Shown: positions 1,928 to 64,000 of the stretch, piece by piece
Layout of the letters: the number at the start of each line of letters is the position of its first letter
How positions within the stretch are numbered: position 1 is the stretch's first letter
From: Escallonia rubra
Lineage: Eukaryota; Streptophyta; Magnoliopsida; Escalloniales; Escalloniaceae
Direction: 5' to 3'
Assembly (NCBI GenBank): GCA_033065855.1
Contig: JAVXUO010002752.1
Span: forward strand, 28,013-92,012
Length of the DNA stretch: 64,000 bases
Position numbers and translations under genes: made by a program
The notes under the pieces: model-generated
Told to the model about the DNA's origin: nothing
Databases searched by the model: none
Seen by the model: only the letters and a program-made list of their open reading frames with translations

Positions 1928-1979
1928 CGTTCCTGGGGACACTCCTTTGTGTTATATCTCGGTTGTTGGCATTCGTAAC

Positions 1980-3867: not shown

Positions 3868-3869
3868 CT

Positions 3870-12350: not shown

Positions 12351-12386
12351 TGATTCTTGGGTAGAATGCAATAAATTAGCTGGTTT

Positions 12387-13340: not shown

Positions 13341-13559
13341 CCCTAGCATCCCTTCCGTCGATGGTTGATATGCCCGAAGGACATGATATAGAACCATTTG
13401 TGATACTGAAGAGGAATAGATCAGCCTATTGTTTCGTGATAGCACCCGCTAAAGAAGATGGAGTGGTAGAGCCTTGGTACATCGATATACAGAATCTTAT
13501 CCGAGACGAAAAAATATCCGAAAGGGTATTATGTGAAAAAACGAGTAGCTTTGAGAAGA

Positions 13560-33500: not shown

Positions 33501-33639
33501 CCAACACTTTTTGATCAACTTAAGGAAGCTTAAGGTCAAGACAAAAGGATGTTTGAAGTTCATCGGAGATTTAAAGGGAACGAAAAGGGAAATTTTTTAT
33601 TCTGATAAGGAAGATAATTAGGAATATGAAGGTCAGATG

Positions 33640-40680: not shown

Positions 40681-43300
40681 CCCCTTTTTGATGACTCATT
40701 TTTTTAGCCTTGCACCTTGTTCAAGTGCAAAACTTCAACCAGAAGAGGTAGGGTCAACTGTGGAATGTTTCATATTACACTGTGAAGGTGAACAACTCTA
40801 GTTGGTCTGTTACTACTTCACTAACTTTGATCTTATTGATAAGGATAGTTTACTGGGTGAGGTGGCAAGCCTCACTGCTGATTGCGCTCATAACTTGGCT
40901 ATGTTTATTGCACTATGGTTCACTCATTACATTTTGTAGCGTGGTCTAAGAGGGGAGGATACCAAGATTTTTCCAGTTGCTCCTGCCCTTTTGAGGAGTA
41001 AAAGTTTGTCCATTGCTCCCATGTTTCTAGGGAGCTTGTTCATGAAGCTAGATATGTTATGGGATGGCTTTCGGTGCTTAAGGGGTATGACATTGCTCCT
41101 TAAAATGAATTGTTTGTGAGGTTGGCTAATGGATGCTTTCGGAAATGAAAGAAGGAAGTTTCCTAATTTTAAGCCATCGTTGGTTTCGCCCCTAGAGGCT
41201 TGAGCCTACCTTGGACTTGGTTGCGAATTTACTTTCAGACCTTATAGCTCACCCTCCAAATGTTTCACGACTTTAGTACTTCTTGAGAAGCTGGGAGTAA
41301 ATGATCTTTTGCTCTATAGCCATGCGTGGCAGCAAACGCGTTATTTGAGCTTTACTACCCTTACCCTTGTTGCTTGCCATCCTAAACTCAATTCAGCATT
41401 GGATTTTTCGTTTCAAACCTCACAGGGTTCTGAGGCAGTTTGGTTATGATTAGTGTGTAGTGGCGTTTAACGCCTTGTATCAATGTTATGATGAAAGATT
41501 AGTGAGATTTCTAACCTTGAATCATTTTAAGGTCACATATGGGCGATTCAACATTGATTTTGTCTCATTAAGTTACACTGGTAGAATGAGCGCTTTGAGT
41601 TTTTGAATTTTGGAGGGAACAATGGACAATCTCTTTGCCTTTGTCACTTCGACCGCAAAGATGTGCATTTCTCTGGTGATATTGCCTTATGATGAAATAT
41701 TGAGGGTGGCCCCAAATAGGGACGCTTCCTTTTGAGGTTCTTATACATTGAGGCTGAACAGACTTCAAAGTTGAAATTTGGTGCCCTGTTAAGAGTCCTT
41801 CCGAGGTGGCCATAGTTATTGCCCCTTCTATCTCAGCATCTCAAGCTTGAAGATTTCGAATCACCAAATCAACTAAGTGGTGCAACTTGAGCATTTTTTC
41901 TTGTTCGGTCTAGCATGAACCTATAATATTGAGCTATACTTATACTTGAAGCTTTGCATATTATCTTTCTTTTAAGTGTTGGTATAACTCTTTTGCTTTC
42001 ACCTTGCTCGGGTGGTTAAGCCTTCTGTTTTGGCCAATAAAATTACTATTCGTGCTAAAATCCCTAAAAATATCCTTGGAGGATTACACCCATTCATGCT
42101 TCTACCAAGGTTCTTGATGCATTCAAGGACATTCCTCTCAGAGGTAACAACTTTGACTTTCTCTTCCAAACTGGAAATTAGTCTGACTGTGAGCGTGGTT
42201 ATTTCTTTTTTTAAGGGATAATGGTGAGGGTACCAAAGGGGTTAATGACCTCGATGCTGAGAAATTTGAGGAGCCTCTGGCGGCAAAAGCTATTAAGTTT
42301 GATGATGTTGAGTCTGAGGAAAAGCCCTGGCATGTAAACAGTTGAAGGGTGCTCAAACGTCTATGAGGTTGGTTGCTGAGAAGGTTTCTCGCCAGGTTTA
42401 GGTTCTTGAAGGCACTAGGTAGATAGGCTCCAAAAAGCTATAAAATGATGAAGAGCCAGAGGTAGGATTGAGGCTGAGAAGCTGGCGAGCGAGAGTTTGG
42501 CAACCAAGAGCTTGTATAAGGAAGGGACCCAAACCCAAGAGGGGGTTGGGGCGGAGCCTAATGTTGGAGTTAAAGAGATTGGTTGGACTTTTTGGGCCAT
42601 TAAAATGCATGAGGTTTGAGGTGACCAGATTATGAGTCAAGAGGGTCATAAACAAGAGGGCATGGCCACTGAGGGCAACACCGAGGTCGGTGTTGAGGCA
42701 GTTGTTGAAGGGGTCGAGGCAGCTTGTGAAAGCGCTCAAGTTTCGTGCACAAATTAACCTCAGTGCAAAGGAGTGAGGTTCATTTTCACCTACCACCCTC
42801 GAATACTGCCTTTAATGCTTCAGATGGTAGTGTTCCACAATCTTCTTCCATCAGTGTCGGGTGACGAGAGATGTCACTTTTGGGATCTGGGAAGGTAAGT
42901 CTATCCACGTCACTGAAATGCCTATTCTCTAGCAGGTGAAGGTCGACCATCCTACCACTTTTTCTGTCTTTCATAGGTTTGTGACTTGGAATCATTGGGA
43001 GTTCTTCATTCTACTGTGCAAGATGTCACGGTTGGGAATTTGGCATGCCACCCGAAGGTACTTGACTTTGCTTTGGATATGACCAAATGTTAATGGTTGC
43101 CATCTTGAGTGGTCATTTTCAAGGCTTGAGAATGTGAAGCTGCTGATCACTTATAATGCTCAGCACAACGCTCTTCGTGCTCAAGTAAAAGAGGCTTAGG
43201 CTACTTTGGCTAGGCTATCCAGGAGGAGAATGCCCTGAAGCTTGAAGTTGTTTAGGTTACTAGTGGCGAGCTTCTCAAGCTTGAGGAGCCATTTTTTCAT
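40680..43300 (+). pseudogene. Plant mobile domain gene fossil, third type
   Basis: Plus strand. NLAMFIALWFTHYIL and APALLRSKSLSIAPMFLGSL, then FMKLDMLWDGF (about 40890-41080), parallel AFLAMYLSRFVFEG, IPLAIRMAQGKRVGLAPVYL and SRLDQFVNDV of the intact gene, here apparently without the intron. FKPHRVLRQFGYDQ-like residues near 41415-41455 are the conserved R-x-x-R-x-F-G-x-D block of PMD proteins. 42200-43300 is Glu/Ala/Lys-rich and may be a coiled-coil tail. Fossil with many breaks. No identifiable gag-pol remains beside it. Confidence 0.55.
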
Positions 43301-46039: not shown

Positions 46040-48646
46040 TGTGACACCCCCAGCCCAAGTAATGTCACCGGAGTTGAGATGTCAATCCTATCAACATCAC
46101 AACCTTGAATATAATATAAAGCTACTACAACATCTGATTTACAAAGGAACGTCACAAAATATCGCCTTACAAAAGTTTTCCTTTCAAAGTACACATAATA
46201 CTGCAACAAAAACTGTACAACTTTAATACAACTTAATAATTACACCCAAATTCGCACCATCATGGTGACACATCTCTCACAGAACTTCAACATAATTTCT
46301 CTTTACCTTTACCAGAGGTCTCTCCTCGTTCAAACCTAGTATTTAAAAAAATACATCAGATAAAGAATGAACGCAAATCACCCAGTAAGGATAATACGAG
46401 GAGTACAATGCACAACCCTTTCGGATATATCTAAGAATCGATTATGAATTCTCAACTAAGGCAATGAATTTAAGTATGCCAAGAACAAACTTCTGCAATC
46501 ACCTTGATACATCACCTTTGTTCAGACTGAGCGGCTTAAGCCCAATAAAACATCATTATTTTCACTTGGACAGACTCATGGACTATGTATATTCAATCCA
46601 AGAGAAAACATTAAAGCAAGTAATCATCAAGAGAATATTAAGATAATAAAATCAGCAATATCAACTGAAATCAATTGCAATGCATGCTCGACTTGACACA
46701 ACGCGACAGGCTCTAGCGTGTTTCATCCTTTTTGTCAGTTACTTTATTTTTCACTGACGCCAGTTACTTCACTTCACTGGTCCTTCCCTTATTGATGCCC
46801 CATCATACGGGGTGTTCATCACAGTCACGCATAAATTAGAAGAGATATTTTTAATCGAAGGAACATACTTAAAGAGTATTTCGATCATAAGTTCTCAATA
46901 ACATATCAAGCTCATCAACGGGCAGATTAAGGAAATTTATTCTACCTTAAGTCCTCAATAGCATACGTCAACAAGAAGTACCGGTCATAAAATCAACCGG
47001 TGTTCAAGCATAATAATAGGAGTTCAACATAAGCATCATCAACATGGTATGCTAAACGAAACAATGAATAGCATAACGAAACTGCAATATCCTTACTTGT
47101 TTGGCTTTATAGCCGATGAACTCTTCACTTCCAAATTTTTCCAACAAACGGAATTACCTATTCAAACAAAATCGTTCTTGTTAGACATCCTTAAGATACA
47201 AACAAACACACACCCAACCTTACCCCTTCCCGTTGATCTGCTTACAACTTATTACGACTAATCCGTTAACCGGATTTGCCCTAACCCATAAAAGTGCATC
47301 AATTGCACTACCGTCCTTCTTGAATCTATTTTAACTCAAATTTCTCATTTTTATGTTTTTTGCTGCTTAACCACGAGTTTCCATAAAATTCATCATTGGG
47401 TGTGGGAAATTACCAAAACACTTTCGGGCATAATTAAAATTACCTAAACACCCCCTCCCTGCTCTTGCACCAATAAACACTCTAATTTCACACAAAATAT
47501 CTCTTTGAAACAATATAAACTAATCTTTAGACTGAAAAGTCATTCAGTGAAATTTTTCGCTCCAAAATCCTATCTGAATAACCAAACTGAGCGCTAGGGA
47601 ACCGATTTTGTTAAATTAACAATCGGCATCAAATGTCATGAAATTTTAGGCACTAGAGTGTCTCAGCTGCATAAGATCCCCATAAAATTTTCATATTAAA
47701 ATAACCTGATTTCGTATTTTTTAAAATTTGAAACCCTATAGATAAAAACATTTAATATCCTTAGCAAACTCAGAAAAATCCAAAAAATTCACAAATTGTA
47801 AATCTTTTAAAAAACAGGGGATTTCTCTTTTGTGTTTGGCGAAATTATGACTTAAAGTTATGTTTCAATAGTAAAGTTTGAAAATGATAAAAGAATAAGA
47901 CTTTTAGTGACAATTACAATCACTATTCACCTGCCTTAAGATCAAAGCACATGCTTCATCACCTCCAACACACCCACCTGCATTTTTTCTGGGATTTGCA
48001 GTCCCATAATTACCTCCTCAACCCATTTAAACCACTACTCACACTCTTCACAACCTCCACACCTCACATAACACACACCCTAATTTCTACCAGTTACTCA
48101 CCAATTACATAGAAACATACCCCTTCAGCCACGAAACACACTCCTGCTACTCTCCATGCACACACTTGCACATTATGCACACACACTCACTGTTTCGTCA
48201 TAGCACACACTAAGTTTTTCACCCTTAACACTGTAATTCCACTCCACTTCCCTATATTTACCCAACAATTGCATTTAACATGAAATCAAATCAAAATATA
48301 ATCATTTTAGCCTTAATTTCCCTCAAGAACACACACCAAAACATCAAGAACACACACAATAAAGGCTAGTTTTTACCTTATTTTGAAGACCTGTAACTTA
48401 TTTAATTCTCCACGAAAATGCCTTCTGTTTCTTGTAACTTCTCTCTTTCTCTTCCTTCTGTAACTTCTCTATTCAGCCGTTCACGAAATTCTGCTTGGAT
48501 TTTCCCCGATTTTCCCCTCAAACAGTTGTTCCACACACTAAAGGCTAATTTTTGCCTAACTTTGGGGGTCGACAACTTCTTCAATTCTTCACCAAATTGT
48601 CCTCTGTTTCTTGCATTTTCTTCCTCTCCTTTTCCTCTATAACTTC
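46040..48646 (-). repeat. Tekay-family LTR, interrupted by the young Tat element
   Basis: Starts TGTGACACCCCCAGCCC and follows the same order of blocks as the LTR at 3870-5559 plus 25999-26828 and the LTR at 516-1927. It stops at 48646, in the CTATAACTTCT block that continues in the copy at 1670-1681, because the GC-rich Tat element is inserted there; the rest should lie beyond the right window edge. The native length would be about 2.85 kb. Solo LTR or element end cannot be decided here. Confidence 0.78.
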
Positions 48647-48984
48647 TGTTGATGCCGAAAGAGGGTCCTTTGCCACGTCGAGGTGCCACAAGGGATGCAG
48701 TCTGAGTTGGCTTCCACGTAGGCAGAGTGGGAGACAGCAGGGATGACGTAAGGGCTGAGAGCAAGGCTCCTCAGGCAGGTCACGAGGGCTGGCAGTGTCG
48801 CGCAGGCAGGGTGACGACGAACAGGGTCAGCAGTCGACAGTATGTGTCAAGAGTGCAACGCCGAGGGCTCGAAGTCGTAAGCTCAAGTGTCTTTCTCTCA
48901 CTAGAAATCCAGAGAGAATAGGTTTTAGAGAGAAAGTAAAAATGGCAAATGAGGCAGAAGTCCTTGAATAAGCTCCAGAATCCA

Positions 48985-48994
48985 CTATATATAG
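48985..48994 (-). promoter_or_regulatory. LTR TATA box (3' LTR copy)
   Basis: Palindromic CTATATATAG, about 340 bp from the LTR end facing the primer site, conserved in the 5' LTR at 62769-62778. On the minus strand it would start the genomic transcript of the element about 30 bp further left. Confidence 0.6.
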
Positions 48995-49524
48995 GCACAA
49001 GTATGCGCGTGTCATCAGCTGACACGTGTCGTCCTGTGGGAGTGACACGTCGCCGTATAGGGTCCCGCAGTCTTGATTGTCCGTCGAATTACCGGTCCCC
49101 GTGTTCGTGTCGTCCTGCCCTTGCAGCGTCCCTCTGCCTGTCTGAGGAGACTGACCACACTGCGGTAGCATGGTCAGAGTAGCCCGTTGCCCCAGCCTCC
49201 AGTCCAAGCCCTTACTGAATCCCACGGGATGCGTCAAGAGACGCGCCGAGATCCTGACAGCGGTGAGGGTTACCCCTGCAGCCAACTGCCAGGCGTGCTG
49301 GACACGATGCCCTCCGCAGACCTGCTCCCGTCCCGGAGTGGCTCGCGGTTCATTGCCCTGGCGGTGTCGATGATTGATGGAAACATCAGCGTACATGCTC
49401 ATAACTCGATACTTAGAGTCCGTGGCGGTGGGTCCTCGTGACGGGGCACTATGAGCGGAGCCCCCTGAAGCTCGTCGGGTGATTGTGCCGGCGATGGCCT
49501 TAGGGTCGTGAGCTCATTCCTGTT

Positions 49525-49655
49525 ATGAAGGCCGGAGCCTTCGGTTGATTGTGTCAGCGAGGGCCGGAGCCCGTCGATTGATTGTGCTGGCGAAGGCCGG
49601 AGCCTCCGATTGATTGTGCGTGCGAGGGCCGGAGCCCCCGGCTGATTGTGTTGGC
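49525..49655 (-). repeat. 32-33 bp tandem repeat in the LTR, four units
   Basis: Units with GGCCGGAGCC and GATTGTG start at 49531, 49563, 49596 and 49628. The 5' LTR has the same four units at 63315-63440. Confidence 0.75.
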
Positions 49656-49760
49656 GATAATGGGCGTCGCGCATCTACTAGCGATGAGTGAGCGTTGCTG
49701 AATGAGTTGAGTGGGGTGATGGCAGTGGTGAGCAGGTCCCCTCCCCCCCTCAAGGACAAA

Positions 49761-49975
49761 GGTGGCCGACCCCCTTACCAGAGGGGTGGCCGACCCTCTC
49801 AGCAAAGGGGTGGCCGACCCCCTCACCAAAGGGGTGGCCGACCCCCTCAGCAATGGGGTGGCCGACCCCCTCACCAAAGGGGTGGCCGACCCCTTCAGCA
49901 ATGGGGTGGCCGACCCCCTCAGCAATGGGGTGGCCGACCCCCTTCTCAGGGGTGTGGCCGACCCCTCGGGGGGCG
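49761..49975 (-). repeat. 24-bp minisatellite in the 3' LTR, nine units
   Basis: Nine units of exactly 24 bp sharing GGTGGCCGACCCC. Because 24 is a multiple of three, several frames on both strands stay open (for example repeated GVADPLTK), producing spurious ORFs. The variant order (CACCAAA versus CAGCAAT units) differs from the 5' LTR array. Confidence 0.88.
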
Positions 49976-50344
49976 GGTACCTTCGATCGTCGTCTGAGTG
50001 CTTGCGGCGCGGAGCGCTTTGACCGAGCGATGATGATGTTTAAGTATCGGAGCGTTTTCACTGAGGAATGATGTTGAGCAAGTTCGACTAGCGAGCGTGT
50101 GACGTGTCGTGCCACTGGAGCCTTTTAGCGGGCCCTGGGGTGTGGTCCGCGGGTGACGTGTCGTGTCACTGGGGTCTCTTAGCGGGCCCCGGGATACGGT
50201 CCGGATAGGTTGTGAACATAAGCCCCCTGCGTGTGGGGTGCGCGGAGGGGCAACCCGAGCGGGCGCCGCACGCATAAACGATGTAAACGATGTTGGATGT
50301 ACTGGGTATGGTCGTCGCTCAGTGCGAGAGCCCGTTACGAGGGC

Positions 50345-50900
50345 CGGAGCCCCCTGTTGAGAGCCCATCCCGGATGCGAGGGCCGGAGCCCCGTCGGGTG
50401 ATTGAGACGGTGATGGCTATAAGATTGAGAGCCCATCCCAGATGCGAGGGCCGGAGCCCCGTCGCGTGATAGAGACGGCGATGGCTAGAATCTTGAGAGC
50501 CCTATCCCGGGTGCGAGGGCCGGAGCCCCGTCGGGTGATTGAGACGGCGATGGCTATAAGCTTGAGAGCCCATCCCGGATGCGAGGGCCTGAGCCCCGTC
50601 GGGTGATTGAGACGGCGATGGCTATAAGGTTGAGAGCCCATCCCGGATGCGAGGGCCGGAGCCCCGTCGCGTGATTGAGACGGCGATGGCTATAAGCTTG
50701 AGAGCCCATCCCGGATGCGAGGGCCTGAGCCCCGTCGGGTGATTGAGACGGCGATGGCTATAAGGTTGAGAGCCCATCCCGGATGCGAGGGCCGGAGCCC
50801 CGTCGCGTGATTGAGACGGCGATGGCTATAAGCTTGAGAGCCCATCCCGGATGCGAGGGCCTGAGCCCCGTCGGGTGATTGAGACGGCGATGGAGCCCCC
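50345..50900 (-). repeat. 68-bp tandem repeat in the 3' LTR, eight units
   Basis: Units beginning GAGAGCCCATCCCGGATGCG recur at about 50360, 50428, 50496, 50564, 50632, 50700, 50768 and 50836 with near-perfect identity, alternating between a GGCCGGAG and a GGCCTGAG version in the later units. The matching part of the 5' LTR is outside the window. Confidence 0.88.
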
Positions 50901-51031
50901 TGTTGATTGTGTCGACGGGGGTTTGAGAGCTGTGAGTTCGTACTGTCGCGGGGGGTCGTAGTGCCGGAGCACGCGGAGTGCGTCAAAGATGCGTCCCGGA
51001 GGAGGTGTCGATTCCCGCGGGATGCTGCACG

Positions 51032-51046
51032 TTTTTTTTTTTTTTT
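51032..51046 (-). promoter_or_regulatory. Probable polypurine tract (A15 on the minus strand)
   Basis: Fifteen T on the plus strand two bases inside the 3' LTR edge; on the element strand this is an all-A run next to the LTR. The position fits a polypurine tract, but an all-A tract is atypical, so the call is tentative. Confidence 0.4.
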
Positions 51047-51056
51047 GGCCCACCTC

Positions 51057-51065
51057 TATAAATAG
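51057..51065 (+). promoter_or_regulatory. TATA box of the antisense PMD gene
   Basis: TATAAATAG on the plus strand 28 bp inside the 3' LTR boundary and 98 bp before the first ATG downstream (51163). Spacing, strand and a purine-rich leader without any ATG in between fit a core promoter for the PMD gene, independent of the LTR promoter, which faces the other way. Confidence 0.6.
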
Positions 51066-51162
51066 GGAAAAAAAGGGGGGAGAGGGGATTGGAAAGAATC
51101 ATTCCTCATTTGAAAAAAAGGTTAAGAGAAAAGAGGTTGAGAGAGAAAAAAATTGAGAGGAG

Positions 51163-54100
51163 ATGGTGAGAGAGGGAAAGCAACTGGCCGATGGGGGTCG
51201 GCGGCGGTGGAGAGAAAGAAAGAAGAGGGGAAGGGGGAGGGAGGGAAGAACGAGGGGAAAGGGGAGGGGGGTCGGCCAATCGAGGGGGGTCGGCCAATCG
51301 AAGGGCGTCGGCCCACACGGGAGAGAGGAGAGAAGGGAGGGAAGGAAGGGAGGAGAGGGAAGGGGGGTCGGCCACGCGAGAGGGGTCGGCCGGGAGCAGG
51401 GGGGAGTCGGGGGATGCTTCTTCGGGGGGAAGAGGAAGAGAAGGGAGGAGAGAAGAAAAGGGGTCGCCAGCAAGCGGTGCATCGGCGCCGAAGGCGTCAG
51501 GATCTGGAGGGAGATCGGCGGGGGAAGGTGGGTCGGAAGCTGGAGGGAAGTCATCGGGGGCAGGGGGTCGGGAGCTTTGGGGAAGTCGGTGGGGGCAGGG
51601 GGGTCGGAAGCTGGTGGAACGTCGGCGGGGGCAGGGGGGTCGGGAGCTGGGGGGAAGTCGGCGGCAGGGGGGTCGGGAGCTGGGGGGAAGTCGGCGGCAG
51701 GGGGGTCGGCGGGGCCAAGAGCCACGGGCAAGGTCACGCCCGCCGAGCCGGTGCCCGTTCTGAAAAAGTTGATGCAGCAAATGTGGGTAAAACCACGAGG
51801 TGGGGCAGCGAGCGCGGCGCGGCCACCGCGAAACGTGACGACGGAACCGGTGCCGCCCCCGCCAACAGATGAAGCCGAAGCTGTGGGTGGTGGTGAGACG
51901 GGAGTGCCACTTTCATTTGATGATGCGTCGGTGAGGATGTACGATCCCGATCCGGATAAGTCGGTCACGCCATTGAGAGTGAAAGGGGTAGTACCGGCCG
52001 TGCCTCGCCGGGAGTTGTGGAGGGAGCTGGCCATCCGGGTAGCGGATGGTGCGTTCACAGTGCCATGGAGTGGTGCGTCGATGAGGGAGGAGCCACGGAT
52101 GCCGTCACCATATGTGCGGGCTCCTAGCTGGGAGGATGCGCCCGTGCCGTCACCGAGGTATGTGGCGGGGTTGTTGGTGGAGCGTGCGGATATACCTTGG
52201 GCACCCGTGGTGTTCAAGGGTCACGGAGCGATGCCGATCGGGTGGGACTTCTGGTGTGATCATATGATGGAGGTGCCGAGGTGGGCGGCTTTATTGGATG
52301 TGTTAGGGTTGGTGCCGGCGATCGACATTACGGCGAGGGGGGTGGAGCTTTACAGAGACACGCTTGGGATGACTTTGCTGTTGTCGCGATGGAGCACTCA
52401 GACACATACCTTTGTGACTGAGTTCGGAGAGATTGGGCCGACGCTGCTAGATGTGATGATGTTGACGGGGTTGCCGATGCATGGAGAGTTGGACGCACGT
52501 GTGACGCGGCTGACTAATGATGAGCGGGTGTTGCAGACGCAGCTGATTGATATTTTGGCGGAGACGAAGCAGCATCGGAAGGCGACATATAGCGGGTGGC
52601 TCCGATTGTTCTATGGCACGCCGCAGGTGAGGTCGGGGCAGAAGTTGGGCAATGCGGCTCATTTTGTGATGGGGCCGTATCACAAGGACGAGCGGTACGA
52701 GATGGTGGCCTTTTTGGCGATGTACTTGTCGAGGTAAGTATGATGCGTTCCGTTGTCTGTATGTTCATAGATGTGATGAGGATTGAGGTTGTATATAATG
52801 TGTTGACGTGTTGTTTTGTTTTTGCAGGTTCGTGTTTGAAGGGACGCCGGAGGATGGCATATCCGCGAAGGTGATTCCCCTGGCGATTCGGATGGCGCAG
52901 GGGAAGCGTGTTGGGCTAGCTCCCGTGTATCTGGGCACCATGTACTCGCGATTGGATCAGTTCGTGAACGATGTGAAGAGGTCGCACGGGCGGTACCAAG
53001 TGGCGACCTACGTGGATTGGATGTTTCTGCAGCGGTACTTGTATGAGTGCTTTCCAGACTATCGTCCGACAGGATATCCGCTCGAGCATCCAGCACCGAG
53101 GACGAGGACAGTGATGCACAGCGGCAGATCGCGGGAAGTGGCACTGTGGTGCAGCGGGGCGCGGGCATGTGCATGGGCGGGCATCAAGAGGCCGGAGTGT
53201 CCATTGTTGCGGTTGATAGATGTAAGGGAGGCATGCGTAGTACGACCGTATAGAGAGATGCATGCGTCATACGGAGTACCCCCCTGGTTGCACGGACAGA
53301 AGATGACGATAGACTTGACCAGGAGGGGGGTTTTGCCACCGGCGGACGTTGTGCTCTTGGTGGCATACTTTCCAGGTTGGCTGCCAGTGATGACGGATGA
53401 TGGCGCGAAGCCTGCAGAGAACCTTTATTACGTGGCTCGGTATTGCCCGGACCGGTTGTCGCGGACATTTGGTTATGACTTGGAGCCGCCATGTGGGTAT
53501 CGTAGCCCGTGGAGTGTGACGACCGCCTTCGGATACACGCGGGATGACAGAGTTCGTGAGTGGCCGGCACCGGTGGTAGCGTGGAGGAGGCCTGGGAGAG
53601 CATTAGTGGGGGCGGTGACGGCGGAGTATGCACAGTGGTGGGAGCGCTTGCGTGCGGTCTGGGCGGAGTGGTTGTCACAGCCATCGGGGACACGACGACT
53701 GGTTGACGTGTATGCCTGTGACCGGGCATTGAGCTTGGTATCGATGACAGCGGCGAGGCAGGCCGGTATGCTGGTGTTAGTGACGGGGAGTGCGGTTGTG
53801 AGTTCGGAGAGGGATCCCGATGAGGAGGGCGAGGAGTCCGAGGAGGAGACTCCAGAGGAGGACCATGGGGAGGAGCCAGTGGTGGCGGTACTGCGGGCGC
53901 CCGGGGCCGGCAAGGGGCCCTTGTCGTTATTGCGAGCTGGTATGATGGAGGGGGCTCGTCAGGCGAGCGCGGGTTCTTCAGACTTGCAATTGACAGGATC
54001 GAAGAAGCCGCGAGAGGCGTCGGAGGAGCCAGTTGTTGAGGTAGGTCGAACCATGGCCGCTTTTGATTAAATCTCGTTTTGCTTGTGTTTGTTGTTGTTT

Positions 54101-55300
54101 TTTTTTTTTGTTATCATAAAAAATATGCTAACGGTTGCTTTTGGATAGGGGTATGGTGGACAGGCGGTGAAAAGCGGCAGCGATGTACATGTAGCGGTTG
54201 AGACGGAGGCGGTGAGAGCAACTGAGGTTGATGAGCCAGCAGGCGGGGATGAGCCGGTAGCGTTTGGCGTGTCGGGGGCCGTGGCCAGTGGCGGGGTGTG
54301 TCCACCACCAGATGGCGAGGAGGGGGCGAATGATGTGTATGGTGGCTTGGTCGACGAGTCGTTGATGTTCGATGCCAGTGGCTACTGGTGGACAGGCGTG
54401 GCGACAGAGGCCGCGGCGGTTGAGCGGGGGGATTTGACGGAGTTGGAGCCTGTAGTGGCGGTTCCGATTCAGAAGGTAGAGATCCCGGTGCAGCCGGTGC
54501 AGGCTGTTGTGGTGGCGTCGTCAGGGTCGGCCGTTGAGGCGAGTGCGACGTTGATGGCGATGCACTCGATGACCGTCGGTGCACAGGCAGCCGGAGAGGT
54601 ACGTGAGAGGCCTGTGATGGCGTCGAGTGGCACAGCGGGCGGAGAGGCGAGTAGGGGGTCGTCGAGTGGTCAGGCTGACGTGGTACTATGGGAGAACCTT
54701 CAGCTACCTTCGGAGACAGTGCGCCGGTTAGAGATGGTGAAGGCGGCGTATCCGCAGACGTTTGCGGGGGTGGACTTGGAGAACCCGGTGCTGCAGAGAT
54801 GGGTGTATTCAGGTTTTGTGGAGTGGCTGCTTCCGTTTGCGAGTGTTCCTGCGGCGGGCTGGACGACGGGGTTTATTGAGCGGTCGCTGAGAGAGTTCGC
54901 GACGTTCACTTCTTTGGGTGTGCAGCTAGATTGGTTGGCCAAGTTCCTTAGGTCGAGGAGCGAGGGTGGTGGTGTGGGCGAGAGGATGACCTTGGTACGT
55001 ATGGAGGAGATGCTGCTTGAGAGGCGCCGCCAAAGGTTAGAGGTGGAACGATCAGAGATCAACGGCGAGTTGGTCGTGATTGACAGAGAGGTGGCGGAGA
55101 TAGAGAGGCAGCTGTCGGATTTGCAGAGACGTCTGAGTGATCTTCAGAGGCGGCGGACGGATGTGGAGGTACGAGAGGCTGAGCGTTTGAGGCGGCAGGC
55201 TGAGTTCGAGGCGGAGCGGTCGGCGCTGCAGGTTCAGCGTCAGGCATTGCAGGCGTTTAGCGCTCACCCGGTAGCCGTTTTGTTATCTAGCTTCCGATAG
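51163..55300 (+). CDS. Plant mobile domain protein, three exons, antisense in the Tat element
   Basis: Exons 51163-52733, 52828-54040 and 54149-55300, joined by two short introns with GTAAGT..TTTTGCAG and GTAGGT..GGATAG ends; all junctions keep frame, giving about 1311 residues. The start is the first ATG after the TATA box (context GAGATGG). Residues 1-230 are Gly/Arg-rich and low in complexity. About 345-800 is a plant mobile domain: WDFWCDHMMEVPRWAALLDV, STQTHTFVTEFGEIGPTLLD, AFLAMYLSRFVFEGTPEDG, SRTFGYDLEPP. An acidic patch follows near 854 (DEEGEESEEETPEED), and residues 1208-1298 form a strong coiled coil (QLSDLQRRLSDLQRRR). It converges with pol, leaving 436 bp between the stops. Cellular PMD proteins (MAIN/MAIL1) are nuclear and act in silencing and genome stability; the role of this element-borne copy is unknown. 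The N-terminal reading is the least certain part. If intron 2 is retained the protein ends at 54070. Confidence 0.75.
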
Positions 55301-55736
55301 GTTTATCATAGACTTGTTGTCTAGGGAGTGCCCGATAGTGGCCAAAGACGTTTTATGTATGCATAGACATCTATTTTGCTGGTACATGAAGCGTGATTGC
55401 ATGTTGTTTTGTTAACACTGTCGTGGATGCATGGTATAGTCGTTTGTATATTGCGATTGTGCGTTGCGTCTGTTGGATGTCGGTCTGTGTCCCCCCCCCC
55501 CATTTTCTCCTCTTTTTTTTTTTGTAATCGAGGACAAATACTTGATAACCAGAAATGAAATATAACAGTAAAGGCCAAGTAGGGAGTGAAAAGATTGTAT
55601 ATTGATAGTGCGTAGATCAAGGAAGTATCTTTACATAAAAAAAGAACTCGTAACAAGGAACAAAAGTACATGCTAGTGCATGTGCGTACATACACAAAAG
55701 GTCGGGTCGTTGGGGGGGGGACATGCCGCAAGCTGA
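55301..55736. other. Convergent intergenic gap between PMD gene and pol
   Basis: No gene. Contains a C10/T10 stretch near 55491-55522 and AT-rich text. It must hold the 3' end of the PMD transcript (plus strand); no convincing polyadenylation signal was pinned down. Confidence 0.45.
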
Positions 55737-58247
55737 TCATGCATAGTACTTCTTCAGATAGCGACCATTGACAGGGGCGGTAAGTTGCCCGTCGTCTGGA
55801 TTGAGCAAGAGGTACGAACCATTGTTCCTGGCAGTATGTATTTCGAATGGCCCCTCCCAGTTAGGTGTAAATTTAGGAGCTGACAAATTGGCCCGTACAT
55901 GCTTGGCGGCTTGGAGGACAAGGTCGCCTGCTGCGAAGGAGCGAGGTTTGACGGTCTTCCCGTAGGCTTTGACAAGCTTCTCATGATATGCTTTCATTCG
56001 TCGCATGGCAGTAGCTCTCTTTTCATCAAGGCTCTCAAGTGCCACCATTCTGGTTTCCTCTTCCCCGAGGCCACTGCTGAGGTATAGACGCGCCGAGGCG
56101 ACTGCGATTTCGGCCGGCACTACACATTCGTCCCCGTAGACGAGGGAGAAGGGTGTGGCCTTCGTAGCTGTGTGTCTGGAAGTTCTGTAGGCCCAGAGGG
56201 CATGACTTAGCTTTTCGGACCAAGAGTTGCTTGCGTCATGGACCATGCGCGACAAAACGCGCAACAGCGTTTTGTTAGAGGCTTCAGCCTGACCGTTGCC
56301 TTGTGGATAATAAGGAGTCGACGTGGCATGATTGATATCGTCTGCTTCCATAAGAGTCCGAACATCCCGATTGATGAATGGCGTGCCGTTGTCGGAGATA
56401 ATACATCGGGGGATGCCGAAGCGACATATGATGTGGTCACGTAAAAAGTTGGCGATGGCGCCCCCCGTGGCTCTTCGCAGAGGTATGGCTTCGACCCATT
56501 TTGTGAAACGTTCCGTTGCGACCATGATCCAAATGTGACCTTTTGACGGTGGATGTATGGGGCCGATAAGGTCGAGAGCCCAAGAGTGGAATGGCCAAGG
56601 GGCCGCAATCATACGTAGGTCGGATGCTGGCATGTGTATTCTATCTGCATGTCTCTGGCAGGGTTGACAGTGTCGTACATGGGAGATTGCGTCGTATTCC
56701 ATAGTCGGCCAGTAGTACCCCAGCCTGAGTAGTTCTGCATACAACTTCTGAGAGCCTTGATGTTCGCCACAAGCACCATTGTGCACTTCGTTGATCACCT
56801 CGACTGCTTGGGCACCCTGCAAGCATCGTAGGGTGCGTCCCGAAAATCCCTTGCGAAATAATTCGCCTTCCGTCTCGAAGTACTTGACCGACTTGCGTTT
56901 GATAGAGCGTGCCGAGCTGTGGTCAGAGGGTAGCAGTCCGTGGGACAGATATTGCAGGAAGGGCTGGCGCCAGTCACCCTCAATGTTGGCGACGAGAGCT
57001 TCCGTACGGTCTGGGGCATATAGGCATTCTGAGCAACCCTGTTGTACATCTGAAGCATCCTTGGCCATGGACGGCCAAAAGAGACCCATTCGCTGGAGAC
57101 GACGGTATAGTGGCGGTCCGTCGAGGCCGCAACACTTTTGATGCCCATATTGCAGTTTGTGCTTTGCTTCTGTCGGGGCCAAACATCGTGCCAGAGTGCC
57201 TCCGGGACATCGCTTGTACAGGATGTCTCCTAACATGAAGAATTCTGTAAGAGTGGAGATGGAAGCGAGTGATGGTGTTCTAAGCTGGTCGATGATCGGC
57301 TGCCTCCAATCATCGGTCGTAGCGTCCGTTGGTACCAAGTCCAACGTCGTGCACGGTGCCGCCCTTTTGATAATGGTTAGCACATGTTGTTCACCGTCAA
57401 TGTCTATTTTTGACGCGATCGTGGCTAAGCTGTCCGCATGTCGGTTGTGGCTTCTGCTGTGATGCTCGTATTGGACACGGCCAAGCTGCCCCTCCAAGTG
57501 TTGTACTAAGGTACGATAAGGTGCCAAGGCTGGTTCCCTGACTGCAAACTCCCCATCGGCCTGCTTCATGATTAGGTTCGAGTCTCCCTTTATATGCAAT
57601 GATTTAGCCCCCATGCTAACAGCTAGCATGAGGCCGATGACGAGGGCCTCGTACTCGGCTTCATTGTTAGATACCGGGAATGCAAGTTTGAAGGATAGGG
57701 ACGTGGTAACACCCTCTGGATTCCGTAGGACAATGCCGGCACCTCCTTGCCGGATGGGAGCTCCATTAGGGTCTTTGCTAGTGGCTGAGCCGTCGAACTC
57801 AAGTGTCCACAATTCATCAACATCAGAGGTCAGGGCCGTCTCTTCTCCAGGTAATTGATGTGAGGTTGGTTCACATTGTTGACGTGGGAAGAAGGCCAAG
57901 AGGTCTGCAAGTGCTTGGCTTCGCAAAGCCGTAGGATTCTTGATGGATAGGCCGAATTCGGCCAGCAGCAGTAACCAGCGAGTAAGTCGGCCAGACAGGG
58001 CGGGACGAGTGAGCATGTATCGTAATGGATCAGCCTTGGTGACGAGCATAATCTGGTGCGACAAGAAATAGTGTCTGAATTTCTGCGAGGCGTAGACCAA
58101 GGCGAAACAATGCTTCTCAAGCTCAGAATAATTGGCCTCGGGTCCTCTAATTGACCGACTGAGATAATAAACCGGACGTTCCACTCCGTCCACTTCTTGA
58201 GCGAGTAACGCCCCTATAGATCTGGGTGTGGAAGTTAGGTAAAGCAA
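55737..58247 (-). CDS. Tat-lineage pol, C-terminal part: RNase H, archaeal-type RNase H, integrase
   Basis: Minus strand, about 836 residues. Residues 1-110: gypsy RNase H (LYLTSTPRSIGALLAQ, YYLSRSIRGPEANYSELEKH). About 140-280: second RNase H (LWTLEFDGSATS.., NNEAEYEALVIGLMLAVSMG, KGDSNLIMKQ), diagnostic of the Tat lineage. About 480-760: integrase with zinc-binding HHCC (HNGACGEHQG..CQPCQRH), WALDLIGPIHPPSKGH, IISDNGTPF and GQAEASNKTL carrying D, D and E. It ends NGRYLKKYYA, as does the older Tat element. The product would process hybrid RNA and integrate cDNA. It belongs to an element that looks nearly whole. Confidence 0.9.
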   Translation of the reverse strand: MLYLTSTPRSIGALLAQEVDGVERPVYYLSRSIRGPEANYSELEKHCFALVYASQKFRHYFLSHQIMLVTKADPLRYMLTRPALSGRLTRWLLLLAEFGLSIKNPTALRSQALADLLAFFPRQQCEPTSHQLPGEETALTSDVDELWTLEFDGSATSKDPNGAPIRQGGAGIVLRNPEGVTTSLSFKLAFPVSNNEAEYEALVIGLMLAVSMGAKSLHIKGDSNLIMKQADGEFAVREPALAPYRTLVQHLEGQLGRVQYEHHSRSHNRHADSLATIASKIDIDGEQHVLTIIKRAAPCTTLDLVPTDATTDDWRQPIIDQLRTPSLASISTLTEFFMLGDILYKRCPGGTLARCLAPTEAKHKLQYGHQKCCGLDGPPLYRRLQRMGLFWPSMAKDASDVQQGCSECLYAPDRTEALVANIEGDWRQPFLQYLSHGLLPSDHSSARSIKRKSVKYFETEGELFRKGFSGRTLRCLQGAQAVEVINEVHNGACGEHQGSQKLYAELLRLGYYWPTMEYDAISHVRHCQPCQRHADRIHMPASDLRMIAAPWPFHSWALDLIGPIHPPSKGHIWIMVATERFTKWVEAIPLRRATGGAIANFLRDHIICRFGIPRCIISDNGTPFINRDVRTLMEADDINHATSTPYYPQGNGQAEASNKTLLRVLSRMVHDASNSWSEKLSHALWAYRTSRHTATKATPFSLVYGDECVVPAEIAVASARLYLSSGLGEEETRMVALESLDEKRATAMRRMKAYHEKLVKAYGKTVKPRSFAAGDLVLQAAKHVRANLSAPKFTPNWEGPFEIHTARNNGSYLLLNPDDGQLTAPVNGRYLKKYYA

Positions 58248-58259
58248 GAGTGGTAGGCC

Positions 58260-59225
58260 TCATTGCGGAACGGCCATGGTCTGCGGTGACATGAGGACCG
58301 CCTTGATTTGTTCGAATGCTTGTTCTTGGGGCGCACCCCAACTCCACGGTGCGCTCTTGCGCGTCAAGTGCTGGAAGGGCGCGATGAGTTCGGCCAAGGC
58401 AGGGATAAATCTGCGGAGATAAGAAACCTTGCCAAGGAAACTTTTTAACTGCTTGGTGTTCCTGGGCGGTGGCATCTCTCGGATAGAGGCGGCCTTGGAG
58501 GGGTCAACGTCGATACCCTGTCGACTGACCAGGAAGCCGAGGAATTTGCCAGAGGAGACTCCAAAGGCACACTTGAGCGGGTTCATCCGCATGTTGTATT
58601 GACGGCATCGGTCAAAGACTGCCCGAAGGTCCGCAAGATGGTCACTTTCCTTCTTAGACTTGATAATGAGGTCGTCAACATAGTCTTCCACTGTACGGTG
58701 TATCATATCGTGAAAGATGGCTGTCATGGCTCTCTGATAGGTGGCACCCGCGTTTTTGAGACCAAAAGGCATGACCTTCCAACAAAAGTTACCCATCGGG
58801 GTCCGCAAAGGGGTCTTGGCAGAGTTATCTGGGTTCATTCGAATCTGGTTGTAGCCGGCGAAGCCGTCCATGAAGGATAGGGTCTCGTGTCCGGCGGCAG
58901 CCTCCGTGAGCATATCAATATTGGGCAGTGGGAACTCGTCTTTAGGGCATGCCTTATTCAAATCGCGGAAGTCAATACAAATGCGAACTTGTCCATTTTT
59001 CTTTTGCACAGGAACAACATTGGCCAACCAGATAGGATGAGTGATGGGTTCGATAAAGCCAGCCTGCAGAAGTCGTTCGATCTCTTGCTTGATTTTTATT
59101 TCAAGTTCGGGGCGAAATGATCGCGTATGCTGTCGAACTGGGCTGAACCCGTTGGTGATGTTGAGATGGTGTGTTACCAAGGCAGGGTCTAATCCGGGCA
59201 TTTCATTGTAACTCCATGCCAACAC
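58260..59225 (-). CDS. Tat-lineage reverse transcriptase
   Basis: Minus strand, about 320 residues. Order of blocks: TRSFRPELEIKIKQEIERLL, then VRICIDFRDLNKACPKDEFP, FMDGFAGYNQIRM, WKVMPFGLKNAGATYQRAM, and catalytic YVDD at 58671-58682 followed by LIIKSKKESDHL; thumb region PPPRNTKQLKSFLGKVSYLR. RT copies element RNA into DNA inside the particle. It lies directly before the RNase H-integrase part and after the protease region. Confidence 0.92.
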   Translation of the reverse strand: MLAWSYNEMPGLDPALVTHHLNITNGFSPVRQHTRSFRPELEIKIKQEIERLLQAGFIEPITHPIWLANVVPVQKKNGQVRICIDFRDLNKACPKDEFPLPNIDMLTEAAAGHETLSFMDGFAGYNQIRMNPDNSAKTPLRTPMGNFCWKVMPFGLKNAGATYQRAMTAIFHDMIHRTVEDYVDDLIIKSKKESDHLADLRAVFDRCRQYNMRMNPLKCAFGVSSGKFLGFLVSRQGIDVDPSKAASIREMPPPRNTKQLKSFLGKVSYLRRFIPALAELIAPFQHLTRKSAPWSWGAPQEQAFEQIKAVLMSPQTMAVPQ

Positions 59226-59501
59226 GTCGCGATATTCGCGGAGGAGGGTAACCAGTTCCTCTCTTCGGCCTGGGGCGAGTTTCGTGCCAATGTAGGTCAG
59301 TCGAGGTCTCTCGCCCGAATCAGCCAGGTTAATTTCTTCAAGATCTTCGGCCTGCGGTCGCGGGCCGTCTTCATAGCAGGGGGGTGCAGCGCCCGGGGTA
59401 AGCTCGTGATCTGGCGGACAATGTTCGGCCGTGCAACACCATTCTGTCTCCGTCGGTGGGCAGTGGTCGAGGCAGTCGGGTCGCGGCCCCCCCGGACACC
59501 G

Positions 59502-60323
59502 TCATAACTGGTAGATGACCCTTCCGTCCTGGATGACGTGCTGGAAGGTGGTCTCAAACTTGGGCTTTTTGGGCTTGGGGGATGAAGGCGGGGAAATGAT
59601 AGGGGCATCAGATGGTGATGTGGAGGTTGATGCCTTGCTCTTGCTGTTTTTCTTGGACTTGGACTTGGATTTGGGTGGCTTGTTCCCACACAGCTCATCC
59701 CAATCTGGCAGCTTGGTGGAGTGGATGTGAGTGGCATTCTCATTATCTGCAGCAAGTTCGGTGAAGAAGGAGGCCTCGGCAAAATAAGACTCGGCGCACT
59801 CGAAAGGGGCCTTGGTTGCGGGGATGGTTACTGCTACCTCATGTCCCGCAGGACCGGCCACCAGTTTCACACACTGGTGGTACGTCGAGGGAACAGCCTT
59901 GTTGACATGGATCCAAGGTCGCCCAAGTAGGAGGTGGAAAGAAGACTCGCTATCTATCACATGGAAAGTGGTGTCACGCCGGACAGTTCCGACCATTAGG
60001 TCGACAGTGATGTGGCCGAGAGTGGACTGGGGGCCCTGCCCAAAGCCAGTGATTTTGATGGGGTCCCGAATGATCTTTCTTGGCGGTATACCGGCCCGCT
60101 GCAAAGTAATGAGGGGGATGATGTTGATTGAGGCGCCGCAATCTACCAAGGCGCGGCGGAAGCCGGTGCCGTTGACAGTGCATTCAAGGTATAGTGGCCG
60201 GTTATGGTGCTCAACGGTAGGTGAGTCCTCATCTGAAAATATAAATGCGGTGGAAGGGACATGTCTGAGCTCAGCCTGGGCGGTGAAGCACTCGGGTCCG
60301 AGGCCGGTGGTGACCTCGATCAA
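59502..60323 (-). CDS. Tat-lineage retropepsin region
   Basis: Minus strand, about 273 residues. The block RRALVDCGASINIIPLITLQ holds the catalytic Asp in D-C-G-A-S (instead of the common DSGA), followed by ITGFGQGPQSTLGHITVDLM and the C-terminal SSFHLLLGRPWIHVNKAVPS. The C-terminal 60 residues are Lys/Ser/Pro-rich linker. It would cut the gag-pol polyprotein. 59226-59501 continues as poorly conserved linker toward RT. Confidence 0.85.
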   Translation of the reverse strand: MIEVTTGLGPECFTAQAELRHVPSTAFIFSDEDSPTVEHHNRPLYLECTVNGTGFRRALVDCGASINIIPLITLQRAGIPPRKIIRDPIKITGFGQGPQSTLGHITVDLMVGTVRRDTTFHVIDSESSFHLLLGRPWIHVNKAVPSTYHQCVKLVAGPAGHEVAVTIPATKAPFECAESYFAEASFFTELAADNENATHIHSTKLPDWDELCGNKPPKSKSKSKKNSKSKASTSTSPSDAPIISPPSSPKPKKPKFETTFQHVIQDGRVIYQL

Positions 60324-62241
60324 GCAATTGAGAGATAGGTCCGCGCCGCGGGTGAAAACCCCATTTCATCGAAGAAGCCTTTGATCTTCGTCATTTGGCC
60401 AGCCGAGGACACTGGCTGGGGGGTAGGAGGTATGTGTGCTGTGATCAAAGGCGAGACTTCCATAGAAGCTTCGGGGGCGAGCGGCTCGACGTGGTCGGTG
60501 GTAACCATGAGCACCTGGTGCTCGCGGTTGTCGTTGCCATGGTTTGGGTATGGTTCTTTCCTCACATCATTGTTCTTCCGCAGTTGTAGCTCGCCTGACG
60601 CGACTTTTCTTGCAAAGATGGCCCGCAACGCATTGCAATTCTTGAGAGGATGACCGAGGGCCTGGTGGAAGGGACAGTAGTTGGGCCTGGTTCTTTCCTC
60701 GTCCGTGATGGGGACCCGCACAGGTGGTAAGTGGAAGTTGTTGTCGTTGACAACCCATTCTGTCAATAGATCATTCACCGTATTTAAATCGCACGGAAAG
60801 GCAGGTGGAGTCTCCTGTTGTCGCCGCTTGTCTGGTTGTTGGTCCCTGTCCGGGAGCTGGCGTTTAAAGCCAGTGTAATTACTGATGTTGTTGTTGTTAC
60901 TGTTGTTGCTGCCGGTGCTGGTGCCGCCGCGCTGGGTACCGGGTGGGGCTGCTGAGGCTACCAGTGCATTCTGTGGCCGAGGCCTCCACGGCTTGACAGG
61001 CCCGACCGTCTCGTAAGTACGTCTTGGCGTCTCTTTGAGATGTCCCCATGATCTCAATTGTAAGTTCTCGAGGTGCACCCGGTACACGTTGTTCATATTC
61101 TTGATGCATATGGGTACCAGCGTCTCATCCTTACTGAAATCCGTGCACTCGAGGCACTTAAGATGAAAGCGATGTACATATTTGGTCAAGTCTTCGCCGG
61201 GGGCTTGGCGAATGCCGGCGATGTCCACTACGGTGACACGCTCAGCTTCGTAGTGGAATTTGTCCATGAAGAGTTGGACCATTTCATGCCATGAATGGAC
61301 TGTCCCCGCAGGGATCTGGTGGTACCAAGTGTAGGCCAAGCCTGTAAGGGACTTGTGGAATTCTCTCAACTTCAAGCTGTCTCCCGGTCCATACTGCTCT
61401 AATGAGCCTGCAAATCTCGTCAAATGCTCACGGGCGTTGCCCTCGCGCCCGTTGAAGAGCACAAAGACTGGTTGTTTATACTTGAACGGATAGGGAGTGA
61501 TGGCTATCTCGTCAGCATATGGCGCGTGGCTTGTCAATCGACTCGATGAGTCGGGTGCGGACTGCTGTGACAGCCGGCGAAGAAGCGCGTCAAAGTCAGC
61601 CTTTGAAACATCGTGGGGAGGTGGCTCGTCCTGGCTGATCCAAGTTTGGTGGCCGGCCGTTGCTGCGCGAGCCCCGGAGTCCCCGGATGGTATAACTTGA
61701 CGGGCTGGAGCGACTGAAGGGCGATACATGGCGGGTGCTGATGCGGGCAGGTGGAGGGTGGCATGGGCGGTCGGACGAGACATATCCACCACTTGGCCTG
61801 TCATTTGGTGCTGCTCCATCAAGTAGGGGTTAGGCTTCATCTCATTGGACGCGTAAGCCTCAGAAGAGCTTCTGGCTGGAAGTTGTTGAGGCGCCATAGT
61901 AGAGAGACTTGTTGTACTAATGGCCCAAGATCTGGCTGCTGCCTGCGTGGGGGCAGCACGGGACGGGGCGCGTCGGCCACGGGAGGCGAAGATGTCGCGA
62001 GTCCTATCGCCAGGGGCCTGGAGGGTTGAGGTGGCAGTGGTCGTGACACCGGCGCCTGGGTAGCGTCAGGGGACGGCTCAGGTCCTGTAGGCTGGACCGG
62101 CAGCATAATCTGTTGCGAGGCCATCGCTTGTATGGATTTTTGCATTTCCAATATGGCGGCCATGAGTGAAGCTTGAGAATCTTGTATGCTGGCTATGGTG
62201 GGGGTGAACTGTTGGATGGCCGCGTTGACTGCCACTTGCAC
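60320..62241 (-). CDS. Tat-lineage gag
   Basis: Minus strand. The N-terminal part (62241-61840) has a short helix-rich segment (SIQDSQASLMAAILEMQKSI) and a Pro-rich linker. The capsid domain lies near 61490-61060 (REHLTRFAGSLEQYGPGDSL, LTGLAYTWYHQIPAGTVHSW, FMDKFHYEAERVTVVDIAGI). A Tat-type knuckle CPFHQALGHPLKNC is near 60660-60620. Polar, Gln/Asn-rich text lies between. Gag packages element RNA. Part of a nearly whole element with few breaks. Confidence 0.82.
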
Positions 62242-62408
62242 GTCAGGTGTGGGAGGGTCTTGGGGCGCACAGCGCGAGTCCCTTCTTCGTCGTCAGCGTG
62301 ATGTCCCTCGCGGCGGGTGGGGCTGCGGCCCTGGCTGGTTGCCCCGGTAACTTTCCGTTGTACATGCATGGTTGCTAGGATGTGGCAGACTGCAACACGA
62401 TGTTCACC

Positions 62409-62426
62409 TCCCCAGCGGAGTCGCCA
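62409..62426 (-). promoter_or_regulatory. Primer binding site, tRNA-Arg type
   Basis: Minus strand TGGCGACTCCGCTGGGGA, two bases from the LTR edge at 62429. Identical over 18 bases to the primer site of the older Tat element (7174-7191). It shows the element runs right to left and that the right LTR is the 5' one. Confidence 0.9.
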
Positions 62427-62768
62427 AATGTTGATGCCGAAAGAGGGTCCTTTGCCACGTCGAGGTGCCACAAGGGATGCAGTCTGAGTTGGCTTCCAAG
62501 TAGGCAGAGTGGGAGACAGCAGGGATGACGTAAGGGCTGAGAGCAAGGCTCCTCAGGCAGGTCACGAGGGCTGGCAGTGTCGCGCAGGCAGGGTGACGAC
62601 GAACAGGGTCAGCAGTCGACAGTCTGTGTCAAGAGTGCAACGCCGAGAGCTCGAAGTCGTAAGCTCAAGTGTCTTTCTCTCACTAGAAATCCAGAGAGAA
62701 TAGGTTTTAGAGAGAGAAAGTAAAAATGGCAAATGAGGCAGCCGTCCTTGAATAAGCTCCAGAATCCA

Positions 62769-62778
62769 CTATATATAG
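62769..62778 (-). promoter_or_regulatory. LTR TATA box (5' LTR, the active copy)
   Basis: CTATATATAG, as in the 3' LTR. From here the genomic RNA would start about 30 bp to the left, giving an R-U5 of about 310 bp before the primer site. Confidence 0.6.
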
Positions 62779-63540
62779 GCACAAATATGCGCGTGTCATC
62801 AGCTGACACGTGTCGTCCTGTGGGAGTGACACGTCGCCGTATAGGGTCCCGCAGTCTTGATTGTCCGTCGAATTGCCGGTCCCCGTGTTCGTGTCGTCCT
62901 GCCCTTGCAGCGTCCCTCTGCCTGTCTGAGGAGACTGACCACACTGCGGTAGCATGGTCAGAGTAGCCCGTTGCCCCAGCCTCCAGTCCAAGCCCTTACT
63001 GAATCCCACGGGATGCGTCAAGAGACGCGCCGAGATCCTGACAGCGGTGAGGGTTGCCCCTGCAGCCAACTGCCAGGCGTGCTGGACACGATGCCCTCCG
63101 AAGACCTGCTCCCGTCCCGGAGTGGCTCGCGGTTCATTGCCCTGACGGTGTCGATGATTGATGGAAACATCAGCGTACATGCTCATAACTCGATACTTAG
63201 AGTCCGTGGCGGTGGGTCCTCGTGCTGGGGCACTACGAGCGGAGCCCCCAGAAGCTCGTCGGGTGATTGTGCCGGCGATGGCCTTAGGGTCGTGAGCTCA
63301 TTCCTGTTGCGAAGGCCGGAGCCTCCGGTTGATTGTGTCTGCGAGGGCCGGAGCCCGTCGATTGATTGTGCTGGCGAAGGCCGGAGCCTCCGATTGATTG
63401 TGCGTGCGAGGGCCGGAGCCCCCGGCTGATTGTGTTGGCGATAATGGGCGTCGCGCATCTACTAGCGATGAGTGAGCGTTGCTGAATGAGTTGAGTGGGG
63501 TGATGGCAGTGGAGTGGCCCCCTCCCCCGCAAGGACAAAG

Positions 63541-63755
63541 GTGGCCGACCCCCTTACCAGAGGGGTGGCCGACCCCCTCAGCAAAGGGGTGGCCGACCCC
63601 CTCACCAAAGGGGTGGCCGACCCCCTCACCAAAGGGGTGGCCGACCCCCTCAGCAATGGGGTGGCCGACCCCCTCAGCAATGGGGTGGCCGACTCCCTAG
63701 CAAAAGGGATGGCCGACCCCCTTCTCAGGGGTGTGGCCGACCCCTCGGGGGGGAG
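63541..63755 (-). repeat. 24-bp minisatellite in the 5' LTR, nine units
   Basis: Same unit as at 49761-49975 and the same copy number, but variant units occur in a different order and one late unit (GACTCCCTAGCAAAAGGGAT) is unique to this LTR. Confidence 0.85.
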
Positions 63756-64000
63756 TGTACCTTCGATCGTCGTCTGAGTGCTTGCGGCGCGGAGCGCTTT
63801 GACCGAGCGATGATGATGTTTAAGTATCGGAGCGTTTTCACTGAGGAATGATGTTGAGCAAGTTCGACTACCGAGCGTGTGACGTGCCGTGCCACTGGAG
63901 CCTTTTAGCGGGCCCTGGGGTGCGGTCCGCGGGTGACGTGTCGTGTCACTGGGGTCTCTTAGCGGGCCCCGAGATACGGTCTGGATAGGTTGTGAACAAC

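What the first reader, a model, noticed from the sequence alone, without database searches (positions are those of the whole stretch)
51163..55300. Intact, spliced plant mobile domain gene carried antisense by a young Tat retrotransposon
The gene keeps one reading frame across three exons with canonical splice ends, contains recognisable PMD blocks, an acidic patch and a C-terminal coiled coil, and sits between pol and the 3' LTR on the opposite strand. An open frame of about 1311 codons with introns in a retrotransposon that is young but not new suggests selection or recent origin. Known: Tat elements can carry extra antisense ORFs; cellular MAIN/MAIL1 PMD proteins take part in silencing transposable elements. 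Inference: the element may use a PMD mimic to interfere with host silencing or to act as an accessory factor for its own replication.
Basis: partly seen in the sequence, partly recalled or inferred. Interest (0 to 1): 0.85.

Follow-up and report, generated by a model that had tools for sequence, protein, structure and literature searches.

The report
Plant jumping gene's antisense PMD gene
A plant retrotransposon carries, on its opposite strand, a well-preserved gene with introns for a plant mobile domain protein; this is a good example of something already described in many plants rather than a new kind of thing.

Summary
The gene (51163-52733, 52828-54040, 54149-55300, + strand) keeps one frame of 1311 codons. 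A stretch spliced across intron 1 matches Pfam PF10536 (PMD) at E 8.6e-34 (117.7 bits), against 51.1 and 43 bits for the two exons apart. It lies antisense between pol and the 3' LTR of a Tat-lineage Ty3/Gypsy element on the minus strand (48647-63998). The LTRs differ at 21 of 1122 sites outside repeats, about 0.7-1.5 My at recalled rates. The gene has the window's only TATAAATA, 106 bp before its ATG, T-rich introns and a long predicted C-terminal helix. The element's pol frame holds in-frame stops, so this copy is probably not autonomous. Published work already reports PMD in 57% of Ogre elements, PMD clades found only in Gypsy elements, antisense accessory genes with their own promoter, and the counter-silencing idea. 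The open frame alone does not show selection: simulated neutral decay leaves it open with P of 0.01-0.23. Verdict: new member of a known kind. Its function is unproven, most likely a nuclear accessory factor; interference with MAIN/MAIL1 is possible but untested.

The parts
48647..50218 (-). 3' LTR of the Tat-lineage element (element lies on the minus strand)
   Evidence: pairs with 62429-63998, TG..CA ends
50357..50893 (.). 68-bp tandem array, 7.9 copies, between the 3' LTR and the PMD gene
51057..51064 (+). TATAAATA, only copy on either strand of the window; putative promoter of the antisense gene
51163..52733 (+). exon 1: repeat-rich N-terminus (51163-51709), then linker and first third of the PMD profile
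52734..52827 (+). intron 1, GT..AG, T-rich, splits the PMD between profile positions 118 and 120
52828..54040 (+). exon 2: further PMD and acidic patch
54041..54148 (+). intron 2, GT..AG, T-rich; supported by frame and composition only
54149..55300 (+). exon 3: low-confidence first half, then helices and a long C-terminal coiled coil; stop codon
55737..58259 (-). pol: RNase H, additional RNase H, integrase
58260..59501 (-). pol: reverse transcriptase, ends at an in-frame stop
59502..60365 (-). protease frame, ends at an in-frame stop
60320..62065 (-). gag frame (Retrotrans_gag match within 60323-61897)
62429..63998 (-). 5' LTR; a PBS-like stretch beginning TGG starts 2 nt inside it

Best explanation
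This is the antisense accessory gene of a Tat-lineage (Ogre/Retand group, Ogre-like by its cargo) Ty3/Gypsy retrotransposon, of the PMD type already known from such elements. Shown: one open frame over three exons, PMD profile match across intron 1, antisense position between pol and the 3' LTR, predicted C-terminal helix. Inferred: it is transcribed by its own TATA promoter near 51057, independently of the LTR, and spliced. Its introns survive retrotransposition because the element's genomic RNA carries them in reverse complement, where the splice signals do not work. The protein then acts in the nucleus as an accessory factor, with the coiled coil making oligomers and the PMD contacting chromatin or transcription partners, to favour the element's expression or integration. 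This copy's own pol is interrupted, so any product would act in trans for intact relatives or have no use.
For: PF10536 at 8.6e-34 across the splice. Dual RNase H in the order RT-RH-aRH-INT, which PMC6317226 section 13 gives for Ogre and Retand. The same section reports PMD in 57% of Ogre elements. PMC5418596 (passages) reports PMD-A1/A2 clades encoded only by Gypsy elements. Own promoter, ubiquitous antisense transcription and a nuclear product are reported for the Grande antisense gene (PMC7264820, parts 1 and 2 of 3). Single TATAAATA 106 bp before the ATG. A decayed PMD at 27777-28525 has 56 nt between the motifs that flank intron 1 here, in an AT-rich stretch, so the intron looks inherited. 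68-bp array next to the 3' LTR, like arrays described for Retand (PMC11963269, abstract and passages).
Against: No transcript, localisation or partner was tested. Ogre membership was not tested by a tree. Intactness is compatible with neutral decay. A second PMD relic (40880-41053, E 0.002 only) has no insert at this place, so the intron is not universal. Exon 2 alone gave no usable structure model (mean pLDDT 30.5).
Confidence: 0.6

Rival explanations
1. The protein is a counter-silencing factor: it mimics or poisons the host PMD complex (MAIN/MAIL1 with PP7L) and relieves silencing of the element.
For: Host PMD proteins silence transposons and interact with PP7L (PMC7156037, passages; PMC5418596, passages); the PMD is shared; the proposal is in print (PMC8616336 section 16, passages).
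Against: The PMD-A proteins of Gypsy elements fall in clades apart from MAIN/MAIL1 (PMD-C) (PMC5418596), and nothing here tests binding. The function of the PMD is described as unknown.
Confidence: 0.2
2. Passenger: the gene had a use in ancestral elements but this copy is a decaying relic whose open frame is luck.
For: P(open) under neutral decay is 0.01-0.23 depending on indel rate, and 0.03-0.30 if the repeat N-terminus is ignored; the pol frame already has in-frame stops.
Against: PMDs persist in many angiosperm Gypsy elements in print (PMC6317226, PMC5418596), which suggests function at the family level.
Confidence: 0.17
3. The antisense transcript matters as RNA: it pairs with the genomic RNA, making dsRNA that regulates the element.
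For: The gene and gag-pol are convergent; discussed for such genes in PMC7264820 part 2.
Against: Does not explain the kept reading frame, PMD profile and coiled coil.
Confidence: 0.03

Closest known systems
PMD-carrying Ogre elements (Tat lineage), PMC6317226
   Same: Tat element with dual RNase H, extra gene with PF10536
   Different: The Ogre intron between its two polyprotein ORFs was not shown here: protease, RT and RNase H-integrase share one frame parted by stops. Whether introns in the PMD gene are described was not settled (searches listed 2 and 8 papers, most not opened for this).
PMD-A1/A2 proteins of Gypsy elements, PMC5418596
   Same: retrotransposon-borne PMD
Grande gene23 and Retand antisense ORFs (TRP28, PF04195), PMC7264820 and PMC11963269
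   Same: antisense, between pol and 3' LTR, tandem arrays nearby (Retand), own promoter (Grande)
   Different: Retand ORFs carry TRP28; no PF04195 match in the three exons here at E up to 1
MAIN/MAIL1 (PMD-C), PMC7156037
   Same: PMD
   Different: host genes, placed in print in another PMD clade than the Gypsy-encoded ones; not compared directly here

Membership tests
PMD (PF10536) | profile match above the curated cut-off | tested here: met
   117.7 bits against 34.9 for the spliced stretch; 51.1 and 43 for single exons
Tat lineage of Ty3/Gypsy | two RNase H domains | tested here: met
   RT_RNaseH at 3-98, RVT_3 at 166-276, integrase parts at 482-648 of the pol stretch; criterion from PMC6317226 section 13
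Ogre/Retand group | additional RNase H between RNase H and integrase | tested here: met
   criterion from PMC6317226 section 13
Ogre | RT tree position; PBS type | not tested
   no reference set at hand; a PBS-like TGG stretch follows the 5' LTR, its tRNA was not identified
Retand | antisense TRP28 (PF04195), 97% of clusters in PMC11963269 | tested here: not met
   no PF04195 match in any of the three exons at E up to 1; other frames of the pol-3' LTR stretch were not scanned
PMD-A clade | place in a PMD tree | not testable with these tools
   no plant PMD set held; viral contigs and genome contigs gave no relative
counter-silencing protein | relief of silencing or binding to MAIN/MAIL1/PP7L | not testable with these tools
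   needs experiment

The most novel reading that the evidence does not exclude
Tat elements keep a full intron-bearing PMD gene in antisense precisely so that introns and own promoter survive retrotransposition, and its coiled-coil PMD protein binds or displaces the host MAIN/MAIL1-PP7L complex to unsilence the element.
Probability: 0.12. Interest if true: 0.75.

Novelty: new member of a known kind. Interest (0 to 1): 0.25.

Why it matters
As a single locus it adds one well-preserved example. If transcribed, its gene model (two introns, TATA box, PMD plus long coiled coil) gives a concrete construct for asking whether retrotransposon PMD proteins act on the host silencing pathway whose host members are related to them, a question that the papers seen here leave open.

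Tried and rejected
Searching the host genome failed because none is held. Viral contigs (40 stretches matched a pattern) and genome contigs (116 stretches) gave no relative of exon 2 by tblastn, so there is no dN/dS and no alignment for folding. No PDB chain matched exon 2 at E up to 1; exons 1 and 3 were not searched there. Exon 2 alone folded to nothing usable, so no fold search was made. Pieces of the two PMD relics gave no Pfam match at E up to 1 (0 of 4 pieces); they rest on tblastn to the gene (E 2.35e-7 and 0.002; 3.5e-6 and 0.003 with exon 2 and filtering), and low-complexity noise also reached 0.002. Rejected: a chance frame. Thought unlikely, not excluded by a tree: a recently captured host gene. 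No claim is made that anything here is absent from print: searched an open-access library only, and most listed papers were not opened. PMC11728184 was looked at by passages and holds no mention of PMD. Steinbauerova et al. 2011 was not seen (not held) and is known here through citations in PMC9289625 and PMC5418596; Gomez-Orte et al. 2013 was not seen either and is cited through PMC7264820.

Full report
What is there. The two LTRs are 48647-50218 and 62429-63998 (TG..CA), 97.0% identical over the whole length by blastn. The five bases left of the 3' LTR read ACTTC, and the two bases of the window that remain after the 5' LTR are AC, which fits a 5-bp target duplication but cannot be completed. 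The element runs on the minus strand: gag, protease, RT, RNase H, additional RNase H, integrase, then a 5.5-kb stretch up to the 3' LTR with the + strand PMD gene and a 68-bp tandem array. The domain order and second RNase H place it in the Tat lineage, Ogre/Retand group, by the criteria of PMC6317226 (section 13 read in full).

The gene. One frame of 1311 codons results from the proposed splicing. In exon 1 the PMD profile match ends at position 118, in exon 2 it begins at 120; in the spliced stretch the best piece covers 8-195 across the junction and the score is 117.7 bits, against 51.1 and 43 bits for the exons alone. This is what a correct intron would give; other nearby splice sites were not scored. 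Introns are T-rich and GC-poor, exons GC-rich; 0, 2, 0 and 0 of 1000 Markov sequences matched the open lengths of whole exon 1, exon 1 core, exon 2 and exon 3. The start codon is preceded by an in-frame TGA and by the only TATAAATA of the window, 106 bp upstream. The C-terminal helix (exon 3 residues 276-372) is predicted with block pLDDT 81-98 over residues 291-370, although no alignment was given; the first 185 residues of exon 3 are below 50. Four weak Pfam matches of exon 3 all lie below their cut-offs; the best is named a coiled-coil region.

The weak part. The first 182 or so codons are mostly tandem repeats. The 11-mer GGGGTCGGCCA occurs 3 times in exon 1 (+) and 16 times in the two LTR arrays (-) and nowhere else in the window, so this segment and the LTR arrays share a repeat motif. 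PMC6317226 left open frames in tandem repeats out of its counts because such stretches tend to lack stops (passage).

State of the copy. The LTRs differ at 21 of 1122 sites once the repeat stretch 49527-49976 is left out; K2P 0.019, or 0.7-1.5 My at 1.3e-8 and 6.5e-9 per site and year (rates recalled). The protease, RT and RNase H-integrase stretches lie in one frame parted by in-frame stops at 59504-59502 and 58262-58260. The first may belong to the family's normal expression strategy; the second parts RT from RNase H. The gag frame may also change near its start, which was not settled. In a simulation of neutral decay at the LTR-derived rate (80% of indels assumed to shift the frame), the PMD frame stays open with P 0.23 without indels, 0.048 at the indel rate seen outside repeats between the LTRs (one event) and 0.0125 at twice that; without the repeat N-terminus 0.30, 0.09 and 0.03. 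This is weak evidence at best for selection after insertion.

Relatives in the window. A decayed PMD lies at 27777-28525 (+) (E 2.35e-7 for its two best pieces, 0.02 for a third). Its motifs corresponding to either side of intron 1 end at 27911 and begin at 27968, leaving 56 nt; the stretch 27912-27975 is 70% AT. So the intron appears shared and old. A further PMD fragment at 40880-41053 (E 0.002, as weak as some noise in the same search) reads through that place with one stop and no insert. None of four pieces of these relics matched Pfam on its own.

What is known. PMD in 57% of Ogre elements (PMC6317226, section 13). PMD first found in MULEs, later in Gypsy elements; PMD-A1/A2 clades Gypsy-only, MAIN/MAIL1 in PMD-C; anti-silencing use suggested for MULE PMDs (PMC5418596, passages). 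[quoted passage not shown] PMD is said to occur only in angiosperms, and TE PMDs are suggested as a counter-silencing strategy (PMC8616336, passages). PMD is the most frequent extra domain in another survey of plant LTR elements (PMC9289625, passages). Antisense ORFs between pol and 3' LTR were found in all recently active Retand elements of one survey, mostly with TRP28, and about half have tandem arrays there (PMC11963269, abstract and passages). In Grande the antisense gene has its own promoter and a nuclear product (PMC7264820, parts 1 and 2 of 3).

Mechanism. Best reading: a nuclear accessory protein made from the element's own antisense promoter. The antisense position explains how introns persist through reverse transcription: in the genomic RNA they are reverse complements and are not spliced (inference from general knowledge of splicing). 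What the protein does is not shown. Counter-silencing is the most attractive specific idea, and is not original to this finding.

Verdict. It is a new member of a known kind, with interest 0.25.

Noticed in passing
window 27777-28525 (+): Decayed second PMD copy with about 56 nt, AT-rich, where intron 1 of the main gene lies.
   Followed up: partly
window 40880-41053 (+): Further short PMD fragment (E 0.002 only) that lacks an insert at the intron 1 place.
   Followed up: partly
window 51264-51403; 49761-49965; 63540-63744: The repeat N-terminus of exon 1 shares the 11-mer GGGGTCGGCCA with the 24-bp LTR arrays, in opposite orientation.
   Followed up: partly
window 11616-14700 (+): Tat-like pol remnant, flanked at 6011-7158 and 24809-25996 by a repeat pair of 81% identity that could be its LTRs.
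   Followed up: no
window 29032-30800 and 37928-39694: Direct repeat pair of 84% identity enclosing weak pol matches at 32770-34321; perhaps another old LTR element.
   Followed up: no
window 572-5548 and 46040-48035: Three direct-repeat matches of 74-77% identity between the window's two ends (572-997, 3870-4385, 4580-5548 with 47605-48035, 46040-46568, 46785-47746).
   Followed up: no
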